NCBI GenBank assembly: GCA_009929375.1
Contig: SAAO01000015.1
Span: 1-64,000, forward strand
Direction of reading: 5' to 3'
DNA length: 64,000 nucleotides
Source: Bacteroidia bacterium
GTDB lineage: Bacteria; Bacteroidota; Bacteroidia; Bacteroidales; Paludibacteraceae
The position numbers and the translations under genes are program-made. Numbering within the stretch: position 1 is the stretch's first letter; each line of letters starts with the position of its first letter. The notes below the pieces were generated by a model, which saw only the letters and a program-made list of their open reading frames with translations, did no database searches and had not been told where the DNA came from. Shown here piece after piece: positions 4,658-21,503 of the stretch.

Positions 4658-7600
4658 ATGAAAATATATAATTATTTAGGAGTCGAATTACTCGACATTG
4701 AGGTCGATGACAAAAGTTATCGTTACAAAGAGCTGATGTCCGACAATCAGCTTTTTCTTTATTTCAGCCTGCCGTATTTCGTCGAGCTGCCAATTGGTGC
4801 GTATGCCGATTTTAAGGCCGAACGCTACTACCTATCAGATCCGGAAAATTTCAAAATGAATCACACCCGCGACTGGGAATATACCGTGGTGCTCGACTCG
4901 TATATTGCGTTGACCAAAACCACCAAGTTTAAGTTTTTTACCGTGATTGGTGGTTTAGCTGAAGGCGACTTCGAGCTTAAATTTTCATTGACCGAAACAG
5001 CTGCTGAATTTGCAAGGCTATTTGTGCAAAATATGAACCATGCCGACCCCGATGGCGGATGGCAGGTGGGAGACTGTATCGAAAGCGAACCAATAACAAT
5101 CGACTTTAATCACACATTCTGCTACGATGTGTTGAGCGAATTGGCCGACAAATTTAAAACAGAATGGGAAATTGAGGGAAAGACACTTCACATTCGGAAA
5201 GTGGAAAAGGAGAAAGAATCCCCAATATCACTCACGTATGGTTACGACTCCGGATTAATACCCGGATTTCAGCGAAGTAACGCCGGAAAGAAGAAAGCAA
5301 ACAGGCTATATGTAGAAACATCGGAGCGTAATATAGATTGCGCCACATACGGGCGCAAAACGCTTGGTTTGCTAAAATCGGCAACCGTAGTACACAACGG
5401 AATTAATTACGTTACTGATGCTTCAGGATCATACATCGAACGACAGAACCGAACAGGCTTAATACTTGAAAACAGCATAGACCTCACACATATATATCCA
5501 AAACGTGTGGGTACTGTTACCAATGTAATTACTGTGAATGCAGAAAAGCACTTGTATGATATTGTAGATTTGGGAATTGAAAATGGTTTGAATTACAATG
5601 ATTTTCTCATTGCCGGCGAAACCATGACGTTGATTTTTCAAACCGGTGATTTGGCTGGTTTAGAATTCGATGTAAAATATATTCATGCCGACCGTCGGTT
5701 CGAACTTGTGCCGATCACTGAGACTGGTGTTATATATCCGGCGGATGCTTTGCTTCCGGCAATTAATGACGAATATGCCGTATTTCATTGTTCACTACCT
5801 GGTATCTACATTACCAATGCAGAGACTGAAGCAACAAACGAGGCAGCTGCAGAACTGTACGAACAGGAACAGGACAAATATACATATAACGGTACACTCG
5901 ACGAACTTTACGCAAAACGTCATTGGCTCGAAATAGGTGGTTTTCTAAATGTGGGATATTTTGTACGTCTGACACTGCAGGATGCTATCAGCAATCCTGT
6001 CGATATTCGTATTGTGGCAGTAAAAGATTATGTAAACAAGCCACAAAAACCCGAAATCACACTCAGTAACGAAGCTTCAGGTAAACAACTGGGTTCAGCG
6101 CTTGCAAGCGTAAAAAACAAAGAGCAAGCCGTTAACCGGATGAATAATAACACCACTCGTTTTGCACGACGTGGATTCCGCGAAGCTATGGAAACGGCCG
6201 CCATGCTTCAGAACTCTATGCTAAACTTCAGCGGATCAATTAATCCGATTACAGTTCAGGCGATGCAGTATGTGGCTGGCGATGCAAGTCTTCAGTTCGA
6301 TTTCGTGGCAAACAGTAGTTCCAAAATACCGGTTGCCCACGTCGAAAGCTACGACCCGGCAACGAAGAAATTTACTTCAGCTGCAGGTGTTATTATGCAC
6401 AAAACTTTAGGCATCGATACACTTTCGAGTTCATATCCGGCATCGGCATATAAGACGTGGACGATGGCTGCTTATATTTCACCCGTGCTCGATAATGCCA
6501 ACAAAAGTTACTATCTGTATGCTAAAGTGAGCAAAACGGAAAATACAGGTGTATTCCTATTATCCGAAACAGCTATCGCTATGGAACAGGTAGCCGGGTA
6601 TTATCATCTGCTAATGGGCTTGCTCAATTCAGAGTTCGATGCCGATCGTTCTTACTCTCCCATGTATGGATATTCCGAATGGTCACCAGGGCGATTCACT
6701 ATAAGAAAAATCGTATCACCTGCAGGCGGTGTATATTTTGACCTCGAGAAAAACGATGGTCAGGGCGAAATAGGTGGATTTATAAAATTTCGTGCTTCTG
6801 ACAATTCACTCAAGACAGTCGAACAGGCTATTGACGAAGTGGAAGTCGGGGGTGCAAACCTAATAGTTCAAAGCAACACTCCCGTATCAACAACCGCCTA
6901 TTATCTTCGCTCTTGCGTTACGTCCGAAAATATTGTCACAGGCAAAGAGTACACATTGAGTATCAAAGGAGATGTTGGGCGGACGTATGATATATGGGTA
7001 AACTGGGGCTCGAATCGCATTGGTGCTACAACCGACAAAGGAAATGGATTGCACACAATTACATTCGTTGCACCTGCATTTGTTTCTGGCTTGGAGAAGC
7101 TTATTAATGTTTACAGAATGTCGAATGCCGACACAAGTGTGGCATCTATTCAATGGGTTCAGCTCGAAAAAGGCAATAAAGCAACCGATTGGTCGCCATC
7201 CTCCGAAGATGTAGCAGCCGACGCAACAGCAAAAGCAAACGCAGCACAAACAGCCGCACAAAATTATGCACTCGCCAAAGCCCAACTTGCAGAAGTGACA
7301 GCAAAAGCGCATGCCGATGGCATTGTAGATGCCGAGGAAGCTCGTGCAATTGCCGATGCAACTGCCAAAGCCGAAGCCGCAAGAGTCGCAGCCGTGAACG
7401 CAGCAGCAGTAGATGCAACATCAAAAGTGAATGCGATTGATATTGGTGACAGAAACTTAGTACTCGACAGTCTTGGTACTTATTCAGGGATAAATGCGCT
7501 GAAGTATTATAATCTTTCAGAACCTCTTGTAATCGGTCAGCAATATGCCATTTCAGTCAAGGGCGATGTGGGTGCCGGGGCAAACTTCAATGTGTGGATA

Positions 7601-11253: not shown

Positions 11254-11462
11254 ACGGCTGCCTCCTTTCTTTTTGCCACCCAGCCCCCTAAAGGGGGAGT
11301 AAGACGCGGTATACGTGTGCCGTGTTCCTCGTTCAGGTAATCTATCAGCAGGTTTGGGCTGTGTGCCCTGAGCACCTCTTTAAAGCTCTCCACATCGGCG
11401 GTAATCTTCAGGCGGTCATCGTCCAGATGTTCCCACCTTTTGGCATATATGGTTAATATCAT
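11250..11462 (-). CDS. Small hypothetical phage protein with REP-derived C-terminus
   Basis: 70 residues (MILTIYAKRWEHLDDDRLKITADVESFKEVLRAHSPNLLIDYL...). The last residues, TPPLGGWVAKRK, are encoded by a CCCCCTAAAGGGGG repeat at 11280-11302, so the original C-terminus was probably replaced when a REP-like element inserted. It overlaps both neighbours by 4 bp. The function is unknown. Confidence 0.6.
   Translation of the reverse strand: MILTIYAKRWEHLDDDRLKITADVESFKEVLRAHSPNLLIDYLNEEHGTRIPRLTPPLGGWVAKRKEAAV
11278..11302. repeat. REP-like palindromic element inside a coding region
   Basis: CAGCCCCCTAAAGGGGGAG: a perfect CCCCCT/AGGGGG palindrome of the dispersed Bacteroidetes class. It is read in frame as TPPLGGW at the end of the small protein at 11250-11462. 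Confidence 0.65.
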
Positions 11463-12187
11463 TGTGCGCCTCCTTTCCGTGCATTTTGGTTGCCTGTGCC
11501 GCCATGTTTTACGGTGGGTATAGCATGGGGCAGCGCCACCACTTCGTCGCGGCTAAGGCCAAGCAGGCGGTTGCGCATTTCGGCAGGTTGCGCGTACATG
11601 GCCATAGTTTCGCGGTTGGCCTGCGCCCGTTTGTACAGCGCGTGCAGTATGCGGTTGCTGCGTTGCAGCCCGTTGAGCACACGGTTGATGCTTTGCACCG
11701 ATACGCCAATTTCAATAGCCACGGCTTTTTGATCGCCATGGTTCAGGAACTCGCCAATAGTCCACAGCAAACTCAGCATATCGGCATTTACCAACTCGCC
11801 ACGGCTTATGCGCTGCCGTGTGTGCACAGGCATGGTGTAAGTACCCGTTTTGCGAATGCTTGGCAAAACCTCGGAGGTTACCCATTTACGGAAAGCTTTT
11901 GCTTCAGGTTTGCGACTTTGAAAAATCAAATTGTAAAGCCCGGACTCGTTGACAAGTGTCATTGTCTGTTCTCCTGAGGGGGTCGGTACTGCCGACCCCC
12001 TTCGTTCGTCGTCATCTAAGCGGCTTAATGCGTCTTTGTGGTTTACAATTGAAATTGCCGAACACACATCTTTTCCGGCGAACCAAGGCTCATTGTCAAT
12101 TACTTTAACCCTGATGGGTTGGTTGGAGGGATTGAAGGTAAATACCTTCGGCAAACTCATGGTTTGCGTTTCATTGTTTTTGTTCAT
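11459..12187 (-). CDS. BRO-N domain antirepressor
   Basis: 242 residues. The N-terminal half is a BRO-N domain: VFTFNPSNQPIRVKVIDNEPWFAGKDVCSAI, HKDALSRLDDDERRG, VNESGLYNLIFQSRKPEAKAFRKWVTSEVLPSIRKTGTY. The C-terminal half is a separate helical segment that includes a Ser/Arg-rich helix-turn-helix-like stretch (AVAIEIGVSVQSINRVLNGLQRS). BRO-N proteins in phages typically act as antirepressors or DNA-binding regulators that antagonise CI-type repressors. It starts just after a long potentially structured leader, and its 3' end overlaps the next small gene by 4 bp. Codon use is more GC-rich than in neighbouring genes, which suggests recent acquisition. Confidence 0.85.
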   Translation of the reverse strand: MNKNNETQTMSLPKVFTFNPSNQPIRVKVIDNEPWFAGKDVCSAISIVNHKDALSRLDDDERRGSAVPTPSGEQTMTLVNESGLYNLIFQSRKPEAKAFRKWVTSEVLPSIRKTGTYTMPVHTRQRISRGELVNADMLSLLWTIGEFLNHGDQKAVAIEIGVSVQSINRVLNGLQRSNRILHALYKRAQANRETMAMYAQPAEMRNRLLGLSRDEVVALPHAIPTVKHGGTGNQNARKGGAQ

Positions 12188-12392
12188 TTTTTAGAAGATT
12201 TTTTTAGCGTGTGGTAACGAAAAACGGCTTACCACGTCCCGTTGCTAAAGTCCTCTTCCGGGGGCTTGAATCCGCCATTACAACGAATTCACGGGGTTAG
12301 TAAGCCGCATATTGTGATGCAGTCCGAGCATAAAAAATGCCCAACGCAACGCTTGAGCAGTAACCTGCTCCCGGAATTTAGAAAACTTTAGC
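12188..12392 (-). ncRNA. Putative structured 5' leader RNA of the antirepressor mRNA
   Basis: A gene-free stretch of about 205 nt between a promoter-like -7 box and the antirepressor start. Read on the minus strand it has nested long-range complements: GCTAAAG (12392-12386) with CTTTAGC (12250-12244), and TTCCGGG (12376-12370) with CCCGGAA (12262-12256). Between them lie hairpins GAGCAG-GTTA-CTGCTC (12370-12355), GGGCAT/ATGCTC (12342-12326) and GCAT/ATGC (12320-12307). A further hairpin, GTGGTAA/TTACCAC (12235-12211), lies just before the start codon. GCGTTGC in the middle can pair either with the 5' GCAACGC or the 3' AGCAACG, so two structures compete. I do not recognise a known RNA class. 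The fold was done by eye. Confidence 0.5.
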
Positions 12393-12396
12393 GTTG

Positions 12397-12404
12397 CAAA
12401 CATA
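12397..12404 (-). promoter_or_regulatory. Bacteroidetes -7 promoter box for the antirepressor transcript
   Basis: TATGTTTG on the minus strand fits TAnnTTTG and would start transcription close to 12,392, which is the first base of the outermost leader stem. No clear -33 TTTG is visible. A 10-bp inverted repeat TACCACACGC/GCGTGTGGTA flanks the whole region (12421-12430 and 12207-12216). Confidence 0.5.
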
Positions 12405-12492
12405 CACAATATTTTTTATATACCACACGCTTGCGGTTATTTTTTTAGTGTAATTGGTAAAATTCGGTTAATTCGTAGTTCGTTTTATGGGT

Positions 12493-12726
12493 TTAGTCAA
12501 ATAATTTTAGTTGATTGGGGTCGGGTGGCGGTGGCAGTTCTGCCTCTACTTCGGTCATTAGTCGCCAAAATGTGCGCTCACTAATGCCAATCACCGGTCG
12601 AACTTTGGTGCGATATATAGCGAGCTTGCACCTGTCCTGCCTGCCCGGCTCGTAATGTTCGCGTATAATCTCCTTTACACGTTCCGAACGTAGCTGTGTG
12701 CTTTTAAATCGTTTTTTTCGCGCCAT
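12493..12726 (-). CDS. Small DNA-binding-like phage protein
   Basis: 77 residues, very basic N-terminus (MARKKRFKSTQLRSERVKEIIREHYEPG) and a central helix-turn-helix-like stretch (GISERTFWRLMTEVE) ending in PPPPDPNQLKLFD. A nucleic-acid-binding role is inferred from charge and the HTH-like segment. No family is recognised. It precedes the antirepressor leader by about 90 bp, with an intervening promoter, so it is probably the end of the upstream transcript. Confidence 0.5.
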   Translation of the reverse strand: MARKKRFKSTQLRSERVKEIIREHYEPGRQDRCKLAIYRTKVRPVIGISERTFWRLMTEVEAELPPPPDPNQLKLFD

Positions 12727-12747
12727 TTAATCACTGTTTAAATAACC

Positions 12748-12855
12748 CTGCCCCCTAACCCCCTAAAGGGGGAAAAAGATAGCAGTTTGTTTTCACTATT
12801 AATTTCTTATTCCCCCTTCAGAGCCTGTCCGCCGTGGCGGAGGGTTAGGGGGCTT
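12748..12855. repeat. Pair of inverted REP-like elements
   Basis: CCCCCTAACCCCCTAAAGGGGG at about 12751-12773 faces TTCAGAG...CCGCC-GT-GGCGG...GTTAGGGGGC at 12811-12852 across a short AT-rich spacer, the typical inverted-pair arrangement of bacterial REP elements. The right copy resembles the one at 9799. It fills the gap between the HAD phosphatase gene and the small DNA-binding-like gene. Confidence 0.7.
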
Positions 12856-13243: not shown

Positions 13244-13436
13244 AAATCTGTATTTTTTGTTGTTTTAAAATTTCTATCTCTTTTTCGAGCTCCCCCTTTA
13301 TGGGGTCGGGGGGCAGGTTAATCAGCCACTCTATCTGCGAATCTATCTCTAAAATGCTGAAGGCCGTCGTCCGGGTCAATTTCGGAGGGTGCGAGTTCCT
13401 TTTTGAGTTCTCTGAAGTTATCATCAATAAATTCAT
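13218..13436 (-). CDS. Uncertain small reading frame, possible frameshifted tail of the gene upstream
   Basis: A 72-residue frame in which only the second half looks protein-like (IDSQIEWLINLPPDPIKGELEKEIEILKQQKIQIYED, a probable coiled coil). It overlaps the end of the 13318-13818 gene in another frame and runs 26 bp into the HAD gene. The LPPDPIKGELE segment is encoded by a REP-like CCCCCTTTATGGGGTCGGGG element at about 13291-13316. It may be a small gene, or the natural C-terminus of the upstream protein after a frameshift. Confidence 0.3.
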   Translation of the reverse strand: MNLLMITSENSKRNSHPPKLTRTTAFSILEIDSQIEWLINLPPDPIKGELEKEIEILKQQKIQIYEDSCNRL

Positions 13437-14375: not shown

Positions 14376-14465
14376 TTAGCATAGGTGCGAGGTGTTACCT
14401 GCATTCGCATTCGAGTTATCGTAATTCGTATCGTTGAAAACGAAGCCCCTGGAAGACAACCTCAC
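14376..14465 (-). pseudogene. Decayed third copy of the SGGFVF-motif phage gene
   Basis: On the minus strand this piece reads RLSSRGFVFNDTNYDNSN...AGNTSHLC-stop, clearly related to RLSSGGFVFGDTYCAYSF...AGRASRLCF in the gene at 14488-14868 and to the one at 14902-15384. Only the central motif is left, with substitutions and an early stop, and no start codon. Confidence 0.7.
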
Positions 14466-14487
14466 AAAAGCAAACAGCCTCTTTTAA

Positions 14488-14868
14488 TTATTTCAGAATA
14501 ATTCTGCTGTACACATCAGTGAAATGCCGTCCTGCATATTCTGCCAGTTCCTCCGTTGGGAAGCAAAGGCGCGAGGCGCGACCCGCAACCGCAAACGAGT
14601 AAGCGCAATACGTATCGCCGAAAACGAAGCCCCCGGAAGACAACCTGTCAAACCAAGGAAACCATTTACGCTGACTCCAGTCATTCCAGTCAGGCTTCCA
14701 ATTGCCCACCAAAGCTTTGGTTATTACTACCGCCTCATAAACGGCCTTCATATACTCACGTAGTTCTTCGGGAACTTCGTTGAATTCAGGTGTTGCCGGC
14801 ATTCCGGTCACATTACAAGCATCTTCTATTGTTTTGATGCTTTCCATTGTTACTTCTTGTTTTTCCAT
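14488..14868 (-). CDS. Conserved phage protein of unknown function (SGGFVF family), copy 1
   Basis: 126 residues. It has an N-terminal helix (MESIKTIEDACNVTGM), a middle LVGNWKPDWNDWSQRKWFPWF segment, and the conserved C-terminal block SSGGFVFGDTYCAYSF...ASRLCFPTEELAEYAGRHFTDVYSRIIL. The same layout is seen in its neighbour, and such proteins are frequent in Bacteroidetes phages (recalled), but no function is known. A start at an internal Met (14847) is also possible. Confidence 0.65.
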   Translation of the reverse strand: MEKQEVTMESIKTIEDACNVTGMPATPEFNEVPEELREYMKAVYEAVVITKALVGNWKPDWNDWSQRKWFPWFDRLSSGGFVFGDTYCAYSFAVAGRASRLCFPTEELAEYAGRHFTDVYSRIILK

Positions 14869-14901: not shown

Positions 14902-15384
14902 TTATTGATAGAGAATGTAATCAGAGTATAGTTTTAAAAACTGTTTGCCTGCATATTCAGCAAGTTCGCTGCTTTTAAAGCAAAGGCGCGAGGCGTCACC
15001 CGCACCCGCATACGAGTGAACGTAATTCGTAGCGCAGAAAACGAAGCCCCCGGAAGACATACGGAAATAAGGGTAGTGTTTATACTGATCAGAATTTGTC
15101 CAATCGGGCTTCCAACCTTCGTTTAATGCTTCGGTAATGGTTTTTATCTCTCTGAGATAAATCTCATCGGTTGTAAAGCCGGCATCTTTCATTTCGTCAA
15201 AATCAATCGGCTCAATACCGAGTTCCTTACAAGCATCCTCGTATGTTTTAATGCGATCAGTGATTTTCTGCGAGAAAAACTCTTTTCCAAAGGTTGTTTC
15301 AAGCATTTGCTTAAATTCGGCTGACGCGGTTCTGTAGAGACCTCGAGCCTGTGACTCTTCAACTAATAATTGTTTTGTTTTCAT
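14902..15384 (-). CDS. Conserved phage protein of unknown function (SGGFVF family), copy 2
   Basis: 160 residues. It carries the full family layout: an N-terminal helix pair ending KTYEDACKELGI, then EGWKPDWTNSDQYKHYPYFRMSSGGFVF, and DASRLCFKSSELAEYAGKQFLKLYSDYIL. It is a tandem paralogue of the gene 33 bp downstream and of the fragment at 14376-14465, which implies local duplication. Aromatic-rich conserved patches suggest a compact binding domain, but the role is unknown. Confidence 0.68.
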   Translation of the reverse strand: MKTKQLLVEESQARGLYRTASAEFKQMLETTFGKEFFSQKITDRIKTYEDACKELGIEPIDFDEMKDAGFTTDEIYLREIKTITEALNEGWKPDWTNSDQYKHYPYFRMSSGGFVFCATNYVHSYAGAGDASRLCFKSSELAEYAGKQFLKLYSDYILYQ

Positions 15385-19326: not shown

Positions 19327-21360
19327 TTAAAGGCTGTTTAATCCCCATTCAGCAGCATCGGCTTCAAAGCTTTCGTCATGGTCAAAATATTGCTCTGTTG
19401 CTGTTTCCGGTTTTGCGGTTTCAACTTCAATGGTGGCATATTGATCCAAATTTTGCATCAGCTGAACTCTTGATATTTTTTCGCGACCATCTTTAATCAT
19501 TCTGTCGAATTGTGCGATATATTTTGCCTGTTCAGTCATTGCCTCCGTATCGGCATCAGTCCATTCTGCATGCGATGTATTGTATTTCACAATTTTCTTA
19601 GCTTCACACAGATAATCGTCATGCTGATACAAATACACTTCGTCTATTTGGTTTTCCCCATTAGCATTCATTGGCATGTAATAAGCCTGAACCGTGTAGT
19701 TGTTTGGCTGTAGTCTTCCAAGAACTTCAGGGTTAGGAAGCATATAGTCTGAGTGCTGAACCTGACAGTACATATTGCGTTGAATGCTTGTAGTAGTACA
19801 TTCGCCAATGTAGCGAACCAACAAAGGGCGGTTAATGCTTGCAAGGTTCGGATTGAGGTTTTCTTCCATTACCTGCATGCGTGTTTTTCCTTTGTATTTT
19901 TTCTGATCCCGGTGCAGTCCGTTATTGTAAAGAGCTATTGTGTGAATATCGTCGGCCACTAACTGTTCAAAACTGTATGTTTTTTCCTTAACAGTATACC
20001 TATTGTTAGCTTCGTCGTAAATACGCTCACCACCTGTTTGGTTAGCTTCGAGTTTTCCGTACCAGCGACCGATACCATCCTGATAGCGCTTTTCGTAGCC
20101 ATATTTCTTTTGTCGGTTAAGTTGCTCGGCGTGTTTCTCCTGCGAGTTACTTGGTGCACACCAATGGACAAATGGGAACACAACCCCGGCTTTCATCAAA
20201 TCATCCTTAAAGTTGCTTACAAGGTGATGTTCAACTTCCATTTCGAGGGGCATTCCCCAACCGCGCGAGTCAATAAATCGAAACATTTCACGAATACAAC
20301 CGATAAACAGACCTACATCTTTGCGTACCGAGTAAGAAGCACCAATCAGGCATCCACTTGCAACATCATAAGCATAATAGGCTTTAACACGGTCGCCGTT
20401 GTGCATTTTGCGCGGTAGATCACGGTCATCGAGCGATATTTTACTCAGCGAGAAATTAGGTGCATGGCGATGCATGTGTGGGCGGATAGTAGATAAGAAT
20501 CTATGACCGGCAGCGCGATAGCTGTCAACAATAGCTCTGTTTTTAGGCTTATTGATGTAGTTCCAGCAGGTTTTATCCGATACGGTTATAAACTCTCCGC
20601 GATTTTCATTGTAAAAGTCCATACGGTTGAAAATTTCACCCGTTTGAATGTTCACAACCTCAATTTCGCCTTTAGTGAATCGCTCATAATCCTCCGCTAC
20701 CCAACTTGCATAAGGCTTGTTACTCATACAGTACACTGAAAGAATAAGCATTTCAAGCCTTTCGTCAACGATTCGCGAATTTTGGTTACAGAAATTCCGG
20801 TGTATCAAAACTTCGTAACCACCTTTTTGATATTGGTTGTATCTGTCTTTTAATCGACGGTCATTCATTGGCAATGAGTGCGGGTATTGTTCGCGATCAA
20901 TGTCCATTACATTTTTGGCTATAGTTGGCCAATAAGCTTTTACAGTGCCTCCACACATTTTTTGAAGTGATCGGCGCGAGTTCAGCAATAAATGAATGGC
21001 ATTCAGCACACACGCGTTAGCGTAGTATTCTTTTATCGTTTCAGCCGGCAGGTACCTGTCGTCGTCCACCTCGTATGAGCTATAAAATTCAATAGCCTTT
21101 GTGTCCTGACCAAGAAACTCATCAAGTGCGTTTGTGCTTTTCTCGGCTTTAGGATCGCCAAAAACAGTCTCCATAACCCTACGGAATCGCTCCGGGAAAC
21201 TCGAAAAATCAGCCAACGCTGGAGTACCAAGACATCCGCGTTGTAATACCTTCACTTTTTTACGAGCTACCAGCTGATCATAATTTGACTTGCTAATGAT
21301 TCCAGCTTCTATAATTTGTCTTACTGGAACCGCTATGGCGTTATTATAACTTTCGTACAT
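19327..21360 (-). CDS. MuA-like DDE transposase
   Basis: 677 residues from the ATG at 21360; an upstream in-frame TTG at 21366 overlaps the stop codon of the small membrane protein and is less likely. The N-terminal part has a transposase HTH-like region (VPVRQIIEAGIISKSNYDQLV). The catalytic core shows the first Asp in SKISLDDRDLPRK, an acidic site in EMEVEHHLVSNF where the second Asp is expected, and the Glu in NSQEKHAEQLNRQKKYGYE. The C-terminal domain is basic then acidic. The protein cuts and joins the phage ends during integration and replicative transposition. Confidence 0.9.
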   Translation of the reverse strand: MYESYNNAIAVPVRQIIEAGIISKSNYDQLVARKKVKVLQRGCLGTPALADFSSFPERFRRVMETVFGDPKAEKSTNALDEFLGQDTKAIEFYSSYEVDDDRYLPAETIKEYYANACVLNAIHLLLNSRRSLQKMCGGTVKAYWPTIAKNVMDIDREQYPHSLPMNDRRLKDRYNQYQKGGYEVLIHRNFCNQNSRIVDERLEMLILSVYCMSNKPYASWVAEDYERFTKGEIEVVNIQTGEIFNRMDFYNENRGEFITVSDKTCWNYINKPKNRAIVDSYRAAGHRFLSTIRPHMHRHAPNFSLSKISLDDRDLPRKMHNGDRVKAYYAYDVASGCLIGASYSVRKDVGLFIGCIREMFRFIDSRGWGMPLEMEVEHHLVSNFKDDLMKAGVVFPFVHWCAPSNSQEKHAEQLNRQKKYGYEKRYQDGIGRWYGKLEANQTGGERIYDEANNRYTVKEKTYSFEQLVADDIHTIALYNNGLHRDQKKYKGKTRMQVMEENLNPNLASINRPLLVRYIGECTTTSIQRNMYCQVQHSDYMLPNPEVLGRLQPNNYTVQAYYMPMNANGENQIDEVYLYQHDDYLCEAKKIVKYNTSHAEWTDADTEAMTEQAKYIAQFDRMIKDGREKISRVQLMQNLDQYATIEVETAKPETATEQYFDHDESFEADAAEWGLNSL

Positions 21361-21362
21361 AA

Positions 21363-21503
21363 TCAAAACTGTTGAGGGTCACGTGGCCAAATTACACCTG
21401 TTATCATATTGATCACAAAAGCGATTGATAGTATAAGAAGCAGCCACTCATATATATTGGATTTGAAATGCACGTACAGTGCAGATATAATTTTCTTTTT
21501 CAT
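21363..21503 (-). CDS. Small single-pass membrane protein
   Basis: 46 residues: MKKKIISALYVHFKSN, then a hydrophobic helix EWLLLILSIAFVINMITGVI and a short tail WPRDPQQF. The start lies one base from the stop of the gene upstream, and its stop is 4 bp before the transposase ATG, so it is translated within the early operon. It may be a membrane-directed phage factor, but no family is recognised. Confidence 0.6.
   Translation of the reverse strand: MKKKIISALYVHFKSNIYEWLLLILSIAFVINMITGVIWPRDPQQF

What the first reader, a model, noticed from the sequence alone, without database searches (positions are those of the whole stretch)
12188..12430. Large, possibly switching leader RNA before a phage antirepressor
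Seen: a 205-nt gene-free leader starts at a TAnnTTTG box and has two nested long-range stems (GCTAAAG/CTTTAGC and TTCCGGG/CCCGGAA), three internal hairpins and one hairpin near the start codon. GCGTTGC can pair with either the 5' or the 3' partner, giving two exclusive folds. A 10-bp inverted repeat (TACCACACGC/GCGTGTGGTA) flanks the region. Known: phage regulators such as BRO-type antirepressors control the lysis decision. Inferred: the RNA may sense a signal (metabolite, host factor or temperature) and gate antirepressor translation. It does not match any RNA class I know.
Basis: partly seen in the sequence, partly recalled or inferred. Interest (0 to 1): 0.72.

Follow-up and report, generated by a model that had tools for sequence, protein, structure and literature searches.

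The report
Phage antisense switch guarding an antirepressor
In front of a phage switch gene lies a folded RNA, apparently not described before, that carries an antisense copy of that gene's start site and a stop signal for transcription; the arrangement resembles one known from phages P1 and P4 but is built on a different RNA and occurs in another bacterial phylum.

Summary
The leader is real, structured and conserved, but probably not a ligand-sensing switch. It belongs to an RNA family without an Rfam 15 match, with 95 non-redundant members in Bacteroidota genomes and viral contigs. Three strands define it: A after the promoter, B inside the RNA, C (a partial copy of A) at the start codon of the downstream gene. 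B is complementary to A and C, and this co-varies: own B-C duplex -17.4 against -11.8 kcal/mol for swapped pairs, 0 of 20000 permutations (n=91); own A-B -30.0 against -16.3 (n=88). A covarying intrinsic terminator lies between B and C. In the window RNA the A-B and terminator folds are nearly isoenergetic. Downstream genes include Bro-N, KilA-N, Rha and AntA regulators and SymE toxins. Best reading: a co-transcribed antisense immunity RNA working like P1/P7 C4 and P4 CI: the terminated RNA silences the antirepressor by pairing at its start site; read-through with A-B paired leaves it translatable. Trans action, transcript ends and repression are untested; the window's own B-C pairing is short. 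New RNA family, known kind of mechanism.

The parts
12397..12404 (-). Bacteroidota-type -7 promoter box TATGTTTG (TAnnTTTG; motif recalled)
   Evidence: sequence; a full TAnnTTTG box lies within 140 nt upstream in 60 of 95 members against 7.7 on average and at most 12 in 50 mononucleotide shuffles
12370..12392 (-). strand A (GCTAAAG...TTCCGGG), pairs with B
   Evidence: own A-B duplex -30.0 against -16.3 for swapped pairs, n=88, 0 of 20000 permutations; own B the best partner for 56 of 88 A strands
12355..12370 (-). small hairpin GAGCAG/CTGCTC between A and the 3' half of the 5' stem
12346..12352 (-). GCGTTGC, can pair with GCAACGC at 12391-12397 (stem P1, A in its loop)
   Evidence: pairs in near homologues, but weak across the family: own 6.03 of 7 against 5.68 for swapped, 30 members with bits >=70
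12326..12342 (-). hairpin 2, GGGCA...UGCUC with a U-rich loop
   Evidence: helix 1 of A5: 82.6% of cells paired, 5 of 5 pairs with double changes
12291..12307 (-). 5' arm of the intrinsic terminator stem (CGGCTTAC, then CCCGT)
   Evidence: helices 2 and 3 of A5: 96.2% and 100% of cells paired, 12 of 13 pairs with double changes; on the unfitted alignment of 11, 73.8% and 100%
12268..12290 (-). hairpin 3 with conserved loop TTGTAATGG
   Evidence: helix 4 of A5: 86.4% paired, 6 of 7 pairs with double changes
12244..12262 (-). strand B (CCCGGAAGAGGACTTTAGC), the antisense segment, in the loop of the terminator stem
   Evidence: complementary to A and to C; own B-C -17.4 against -11.8, n=91, 0 of 20000 permutations
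12220..12242 (-). 3' arm of the terminator (ACGGG, then GTAAGCCG) and U-tract
   Evidence: at least 5 T in 8 nt at the terminator end in 91 of 95 members, against 14 of 88 at a site 300 nt downstream (the model was trained with this T run)
12211..12235 (-). alternative 3' hairpin GTGGTAA/TTACCAC with the U-tract in its loop
   Evidence: moderate support across the family: own -12.0 against -9.3, 0 of 20000 permutations, but own best in column for only 6 of 91
12194..12208 (-). strand C (GCTAAA-n4-TCTTC), partial copy of A, ends 6 bases before the antirepressor ATG
   Evidence: pairs with B as 6 + 5 bp; composition-corrected z -4.9 for this start against -1.2 or weaker for the other window starts sampled; the exact match alone (6 nt) is not special in the window
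11459..12187 (-). antirepressor gene, Bro-N domain; proposed target of the RNA
   Evidence: PF02498 E 2.7e-24; phrog_130 anti-repressor Ant E 7e-52

Best explanation
The leader is a co-transcribed antisense immunity RNA with three pairing strands. Shown by comparison: strand B inside the RNA is complementary both to strand A just after the promoter and to strand C at the start codon of the downstream gene, and these complementarities are kept while the sequences change; a covarying stem followed by a U-tract lies between B and C. Inferred: most transcripts end at that terminator and give an RNA of about 175 nt that shows B in the loop of the terminator stem. B then pairs with C on read-through mRNA and blocks translation of the antirepressor, and by pairing with A of nascent transcripts it removes the A-B helix that competes with the terminator, so more transcripts stop. 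When A and B pair within a transcript, the terminator 3' arm can pair downstream instead, polymerase reads through, C stays free and the antirepressor is made. A resident prophage would thereby keep its own and any same-specificity superinfecting phage silent; phages with other A/B/C sequences would be heteroimmune.
For: B-C: own mean -17.4 against -11.8 kcal/mol for swapped pairs, 0 of 20000 permutations, longest exact complement at least 8 nt in 57 of 91 against 3.2% of swapped pairs, up to 20 nt; the 77 members not found through an antirepressor give -17.6 against -11.9, again 0 of 20000. First 11 homologues: the own B was the best partner for 10 of 11 C strands. Position: when B is searched against 500 nt downstream, the single longest exact complement lies at the start codon region (-45 to +20) in 59 of 67 members that have one, and in 53 of 57 whose longest is 8 nt or more (ties counted); about 13% expected if spread evenly. 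A-B: -30.0 against -16.3, n=88. Composition-corrected comparison with other gene starts in the locus: own complement strictly the longest in 55 of 80, at least 8 nt in 49 of 80 against 2.6% of 781 other starts. Structure: 91.7% of 2055 cells paired, 23 of 25 pairs with double changes, 0 of 500 shuffles, covariation 0.548 against at most 0.092 when slid; unfitted alignment of 11: 0.464 against at most 0.143. Bistability: window terminated RNA -64.6 (A-B) against -63.1 (terminator); of 37 members with bits >=60, 35 can form at least 10 A-B pairs and 37 at least 10 terminator pairs, median difference 2.6 kcal/mol. Downstream genes that can be named are mainly phage switch genes.
Against: No expression data: transcript start, termination and trans action are unproved. 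Raw duplex energy does not pick the own start among all ORF starts of a locus (8 of 85 best, 6.2 expected); only the composition-corrected and exact-match measures do. The permutation signal is strong in sum but not in every member: own C is the single best for 10 of 91 B strands and own B for 25 of 91 C strands. In the window itself the exact B-C match is 6 nt, which occurs at seven places in 500 nt, and the two-part duplex is only -11.9 kcal/mol. Members with a weak C: L051, L105, L118, L151, L189, L205, L108; of three members fetched later, L233 has only 6 nt. Stem P1 is weak across the family and the alternative 3' hairpin only moderate. In one search C was cut out around the start codon, so its place there is by construction; one search tests the place without that.
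Confidence: 0.7

Rival explanations
1. Purely cis-acting attenuator: A-B against terminator and B against A or C are decided within one transcript by transcription speed or a protein, and the terminated RNA has no role in trans.
For: All three strands lie on one transcript; the two folds are nearly isoenergetic in the window and differ by a median of 2.6 kcal/mol in 37 members.
Against: Inside one transcript A-B (-30) is far stronger than B-C (-17) and can form first, so C would rarely be used; yet C keeps its complementarity. Among copies within one genome or contig, 13 of 15 B strands prefer their own C (exceptions L189, L117), as expected if cross-talk matters.
Confidence: 0.2
2. IsrK-like activator: the read-through mRNA is locked and the short RNA opens it in trans.
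For: IsrK of Gifsy-1 has a terminator-read-through leader before an antirepressor and acts in trans as an activator (PMC4825925, abstract and passages).
Against: Here B is complementary to the start-codon region itself, and C is mostly unpaired in the predicted A-B read-through fold of the window RNA.
Confidence: 0.1
3. Ligand-binding riboswitch or thermosensor.
For: Conserved scaffold with an invariant loop core TAATG in the first 11 homologues, and bistable folds.
Against: Downstream genes are phage regulators, SymE toxins and small ORFs of several unrelated clusters, with no shared metabolic theme seen; a strong evolutionary signal lies in antisense specificity.
Confidence: 0.06
4. DNA-level element (MITE or recombination site) whose inverted repeats fold by chance.
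For: Plus strand folds as well as minus; 10-bp inverted repeat flanks the region.
Against: One copy in the 3.87-Mb genome at E 0.001; the flanking repeat is not seen beyond the nearest homologue; promoter, terminator and start-codon complementarity are all on one strand.
Confidence: 0.02

Closest known systems
C4 antisense RNA of phages P1 and P7 (Rfam RF01695; c4-a1b1)
   Same: Antisense RNA that targets the antirepressor mRNA; a'/b' segments pair with the target around its ribosome-binding site (PMC12197685 and PMC5320573, passages). The upstream a1/b1 copies and transcription from the promoter of the target are recalled.
   Different: C4 is about 77 nt with three stem-loops and RNase P processing (PMC5320573, passages), listed for Proteobacteria and phages (PMC2864571, passages). 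This RNA is larger, has its own scaffold with an intrinsic terminator, does not match RF01695, and occurs in Bacteroidota.
CI RNA of satellite phage P4 (seqA, CI, seqC)
   Same: An RNA processed from a leader pairs with one sequence upstream and one downstream of it and causes premature termination (described in PMC4825925, passage).
   Different: No antirepressor start-codon target in P4 and a different scaffold (recalled). Here C lies at the start codon.
IsrK of Salmonella prophage Gifsy-1
   Same: sRNA made by termination in the leader of an operon with an antirepressor; read-through gives the mRNA (PMC4825925, abstract and passages).
   Different: IsrK activates in trans; here pairing at the start codon predicts repression.
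SymE/SymR type I toxin-antitoxin (SymR recalled)
   Same: Four genes downstream of members encode SymE_toxin proteins: three directly (L107, L232, L234) and one as a second ORF (L108).
   Different: SymR is transcribed from the opposite strand (recalled); here the antisense segment is on the same strand, upstream.
P22 sar and phi24B 24B_1 RNAs
   Same: Small phage RNAs that restrain an antirepressor (PMC12197685, passages).
   Different: Different location and structure; no three-strand layout (recalled).

Membership tests
C4 antisense RNA (RF01695) | match to the Rfam covariance model | tested here: not met
   no RF01695 match up to E 10 in window 11900-12600 or up to E 5 in 20 member loci
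C4 antisense RNA (RF01695) | lies upstream of a phage antirepressor on the same strand | tested here: met
   window gene is Bro-N; among 84 downstream ORFs of the family Bro-N 17, ANT 11, pRha 6, KilA-N 4, AntA 1, a protein can count twice; many other members stand before other genes
C4 antisense RNA (RF01695) | internal antisense segment complementary to the translation start region, with an upstream copy of that region | tested here: met
   for the family; in the window the pairing is 6 + 5 bp
C4 antisense RNA (RF01695) | processing by RNase P to about 77 nt | not testable with these tools
   needs RNA mapping
P4 CI-type immunity RNA | pairing strands both upstream and downstream of the antisense segment, with a terminator in the leader | tested here: met
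   A, B, C and terminator; the terminator lies between B and C
P4 CI-type immunity RNA | trans-acting premature termination | not testable with these tools
   no expression data
Riboswitch | match to a known class | tested here: not met
   Rfam 15
Riboswitch | ligand-dependent switching | not testable with these tools
   none
Intrinsic terminator | covarying stem followed directly by a U-tract | tested here: met

The most novel reading that the evidence does not exclude
A phylum-wide class of bistable three-strand antisense leaders gives Bacteroidota phages an RNA-based immunity code: each element has a conserved scaffold and a fast-changing A/B/C tag at the start codon it guards, so tags define immunity groups. 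The same scaffold has been fitted to antirepressors of several families, to SymE toxins and to many unnamed small genes, and unrelated scaffolds in other Bacteroidota phages may have reached the same layout independently.
Probability: 0.55. Interest if true: 0.85.

Novelty: new variant of a known kind. Interest (0 to 1): 0.76.

Why it matters
If right, an RNA immunity mechanism known from a few phages of Proteobacteria is also used, on a different RNA, by many phages of Bacteroidota, animal-gut members included. The A/B/C tag can be read from sequence, so which phages silence each other becomes a testable prediction. It also gives a handle on the unnamed small genes behind the same RNA, and ties SymE toxins to a same-strand antisense guard.

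Tried and rejected
Near DNA matches: none in the phage collection; in 100 relatives only one full-length homologue, in G022, the other listed rows being short; an exact 31-nt core pattern found nothing in viral contigs. Rfam gave only sub-threshold matches over the elements (in one search one of them, Termite-leu at 22.5 bits against a gathering score of 51, lies over the L108 element on the opposite strand). MITE or multicopy element: disfavoured, one copy in the genome. P1 stem as a family feature: tested, weak. Raw B duplex energy against all gene starts in the locus: negative, then repeated with composition correction and up to 12 sampled starts per locus; both are reported. First A extraction was wrong for 3 of 11 sequences (L062, L048, L090) and was redone by promoter position. 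First forced-fold script did not apply its constraints and was redone. Scan of 60 other antirepressor loci (L062's second leader among them) for the same layout: at least 10 nt complement in 12 of 60 against 2.9% of swapped pairs, but some of these are terminator arms or T runs, so it is only a lead. tblastn of the antirepressor in annotated phages: 1000 records, all under 60% identity, none named as a Bacteroidota phage in the 40 rows shown. Inverted 14-nt match between strand B and the DGR variable repeat: treated as chance.

Rows dropped: 10 cmsearch rows under 30 bits; 7 rows with E above 1; L050 as a duplicate of L049; L121 (and L059) as copies of L010; L098, L099 and L095/L100 as copies of the window, L096 and L063. 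108 hits entered and 95 stayed after near-duplicates; 91 had enough flank; 88 had a usable promoter box; 86 had an ORF and 300 nt downstream.

The confidence was lowered from 0.72 to 0.70 on checking, because one search shows that the window's own exact B-C match is not distinctive.

Full report
What is there. On the minus strand, between a small gene ending at 12493 and the antirepressor starting at 12187, lies a leader of about 205 nt with no ORF of 50 aa or more on this strand. The antirepressor has a Bro-N domain and its best PHROG is an anti-repressor Ant. It sits in a Mu-type prophage: Portal_Mu, a phage virion morphogenesis protein and DUF3164 are in the window; calling the 679-aa protein at 19327-21366 a transposase is recalled, no Pfam match backs it. 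The leader folds better than 200 shuffles (z -3.4) and matches no Rfam 15 family at gathering level.

Homologues change the picture. The nearest copy (82% over 253 nt) has a core of about 60 nt almost unchanged, while both outer stems differ by compensatory changes. Further relatives came from the antirepressor searches. The 3' half of the long-range stem (strand B) is complementary to the 5' half (strand A) and again to a third stretch (strand C) at the start codon of the downstream gene. Between B and C stands a stem followed by a U-tract, an intrinsic terminator, with B in its loop.

The family. A covariance model of hairpin 2 through terminator (11 sequences, 127 positions) found members in 17 of 393 genomes of the order at E<=0.01, 3 of 395 of the class, 3 of 296 of the phylum and 5 of 100 relatives at E<=0.001, each count including the window's own genome, and in many viral contigs fetched by two sequence patterns. 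I kept 108 hits, 95 after removing near-duplicates. On the fitted alignment of 90 hits, 91.7% of cells pair, 23 of 25 pairs have changes on both sides, and no shuffle reaches the observed values. That alignment leans towards the structure, but the first MAFFT alignment of 11 shows the same signal more weakly. In 20 member loci scanned against Rfam nothing reached a gathering score; the one match lying over an element is on the opposite strand and far below threshold.

The antisense test. If B is an antisense to the start of the downstream gene, each B should pair better with its own C than with the C of relatives. In sum it does: mean -17.4 against -11.8 kcal/mol, no permutation of 20000 as good, exact complement of 8 nt or more in 57 of 91 against 3.2% of swapped pairs. 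It is not so for every member: the own B is the single best for 25 of 91 C strands and in the top 5% for 48. The 77 members found through the RNA alone give the same mean difference. Searched against 500 nt downstream without a fixed C, the single longest complement lies at the start codon region in 59 of 67 members that have one, and in 53 of 57 whose longest is at least 8 nt (ties counted). Two of three members fetched later (L232, L234) have 10-nt complements across the start codon; the third has only 6. A-B pairing is stronger still (-30.0 against -16.3), and A and C share 7 nt or more in 60 of 88 against 16% of swapped pairs. One measure failed: by raw duplex energy, B does not prefer its own gene start over other ORF starts in the locus (8 of 85, 6.2 expected). 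I attribute this to the A-rich, weakly pairing start regions of these genes. With composition correction the own start stands out (mean z -1.82 against -0.03; lowest z in 28 of 80, 8.8 expected; strictly longest complement in 55 of 80). In the window the corrected z is -4.9, which I attribute to two short matches (6 + 5 bp) that line up; its 6-nt exact match alone occurs at seven places in 500 nt.

How it probably works. In the window the short terminated RNA (taken from 12397 to the U-tract) can fold as A-B (-64.6) or as terminator stem with B in the loop (-63.1). As nested structures these folds exclude each other. Among 37 members with at least 60 bits, 35 can form 10 or more A-B pairs and 37 can form 10 or more terminator pairs, with a median difference of 2.6 kcal/mol in favour of A-B. 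In the read-through RNA the terminator 3' arm can pair downstream with the U-tract in the loop; this has moderate support. I infer two states. Terminated: B exposed, an antisense RNA against C, and against A of new transcripts. Read-through: A-B closed, C free, antirepressor translated. A resident prophage would silence itself and relatives with the same tag. Among copies within one genome or contig, 13 of 15 B strands prefer their own C; L189 and L117 do not, and L223b barely does.

Downstream genes. Of 84 downstream ORFs, 17 match Bro-N, 11 ANT/KilAC, 6 Rha, 4 KilA-N, 1 AntA and 1 SymE; a protein can match two. The window and 13 members were found through the antirepressor, so that count is biased; among the 81 found through the RNA alone, 20 fall in the protein cluster that holds these regulators (single linkage). 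SymE-type toxins follow four members, in one case as the second ORF. Many others are small and unnamed.

Known relatives. C4 of P1/P7 and CI of P4 have the same logic: an antisense RNA inside a leader, for CI with pairing partners before and after it (passage in PMC4825925), for C4 likewise (recalled). Weinberg et al. 2010 list C4 for Proteobacteria and phages (table passage). IsrK of Gifsy-1 has a comparable leader but activates. I did not find this RNA described in the papers searched (listings, with passages read in four papers); the library lacks most subscription journals, and the paper at the DOI I recall for the 2017 survey of 224 RNA motifs is not held. The RNA fails the Rfam C4 test, so it works like C4 but is not filed as C4.

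Limits. No transcript data, no trans test. The transcription start is inferred from the box only. Members without a convincing C exist (L051, L105, L118, L151, L189, L205, L108). Hits near 30 bits may include false members, although several of them carry the longest complements (L119, L114, L157: 16 to 17 nt).

Noticed in passing
window 14378-14468, 14562-14652, 14948-15000: Diversity-generating-retroelement layout: the first two repeats differ at 19 positions, 17 of them adenines of the first copy on the minus strand, next to RT-17 RNA (RF03020, 14265-14356) and two ORFs that carry the variable copies; no RVT_1 reverse transcriptase was found in the whole genome.
   Followed up: partly
window 12254-12267 and 14627-14640: A 14-nt exact inverted match between strand B of the leader and the DGR variable repeat; not at a start codon, probably chance.
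   Followed up: no
L062 ~4700-5000, L060, L061, L067, L071, L074, L031: Other antirepressor leaders in Bacteroidota loci look like different RNA scaffolds with the same A-B-C layout and a U-tract (read by eye; scan), for example a 14-nt complement in L071.
   Followed up: partly
L104/L116/L119, L178, L189, L211, L223: Several copies of the RNA lie in one genome or contig, most of them before small ORFs of an unnamed cluster (17 ORFs; L223 belongs to another cluster); function unknown.
   Followed up: partly
L107, L108, L232, L234: SymE-type toxin genes stand behind members of this RNA family, suggesting a same-strand antisense guard for SymE in Bacteroidota.
   Followed up: partly
window 12742-12779 and 13291-13322: Copies of a palindromic repeat (CCCCCTAAAGGGGG type) between prophage genes.
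   Followed up: no
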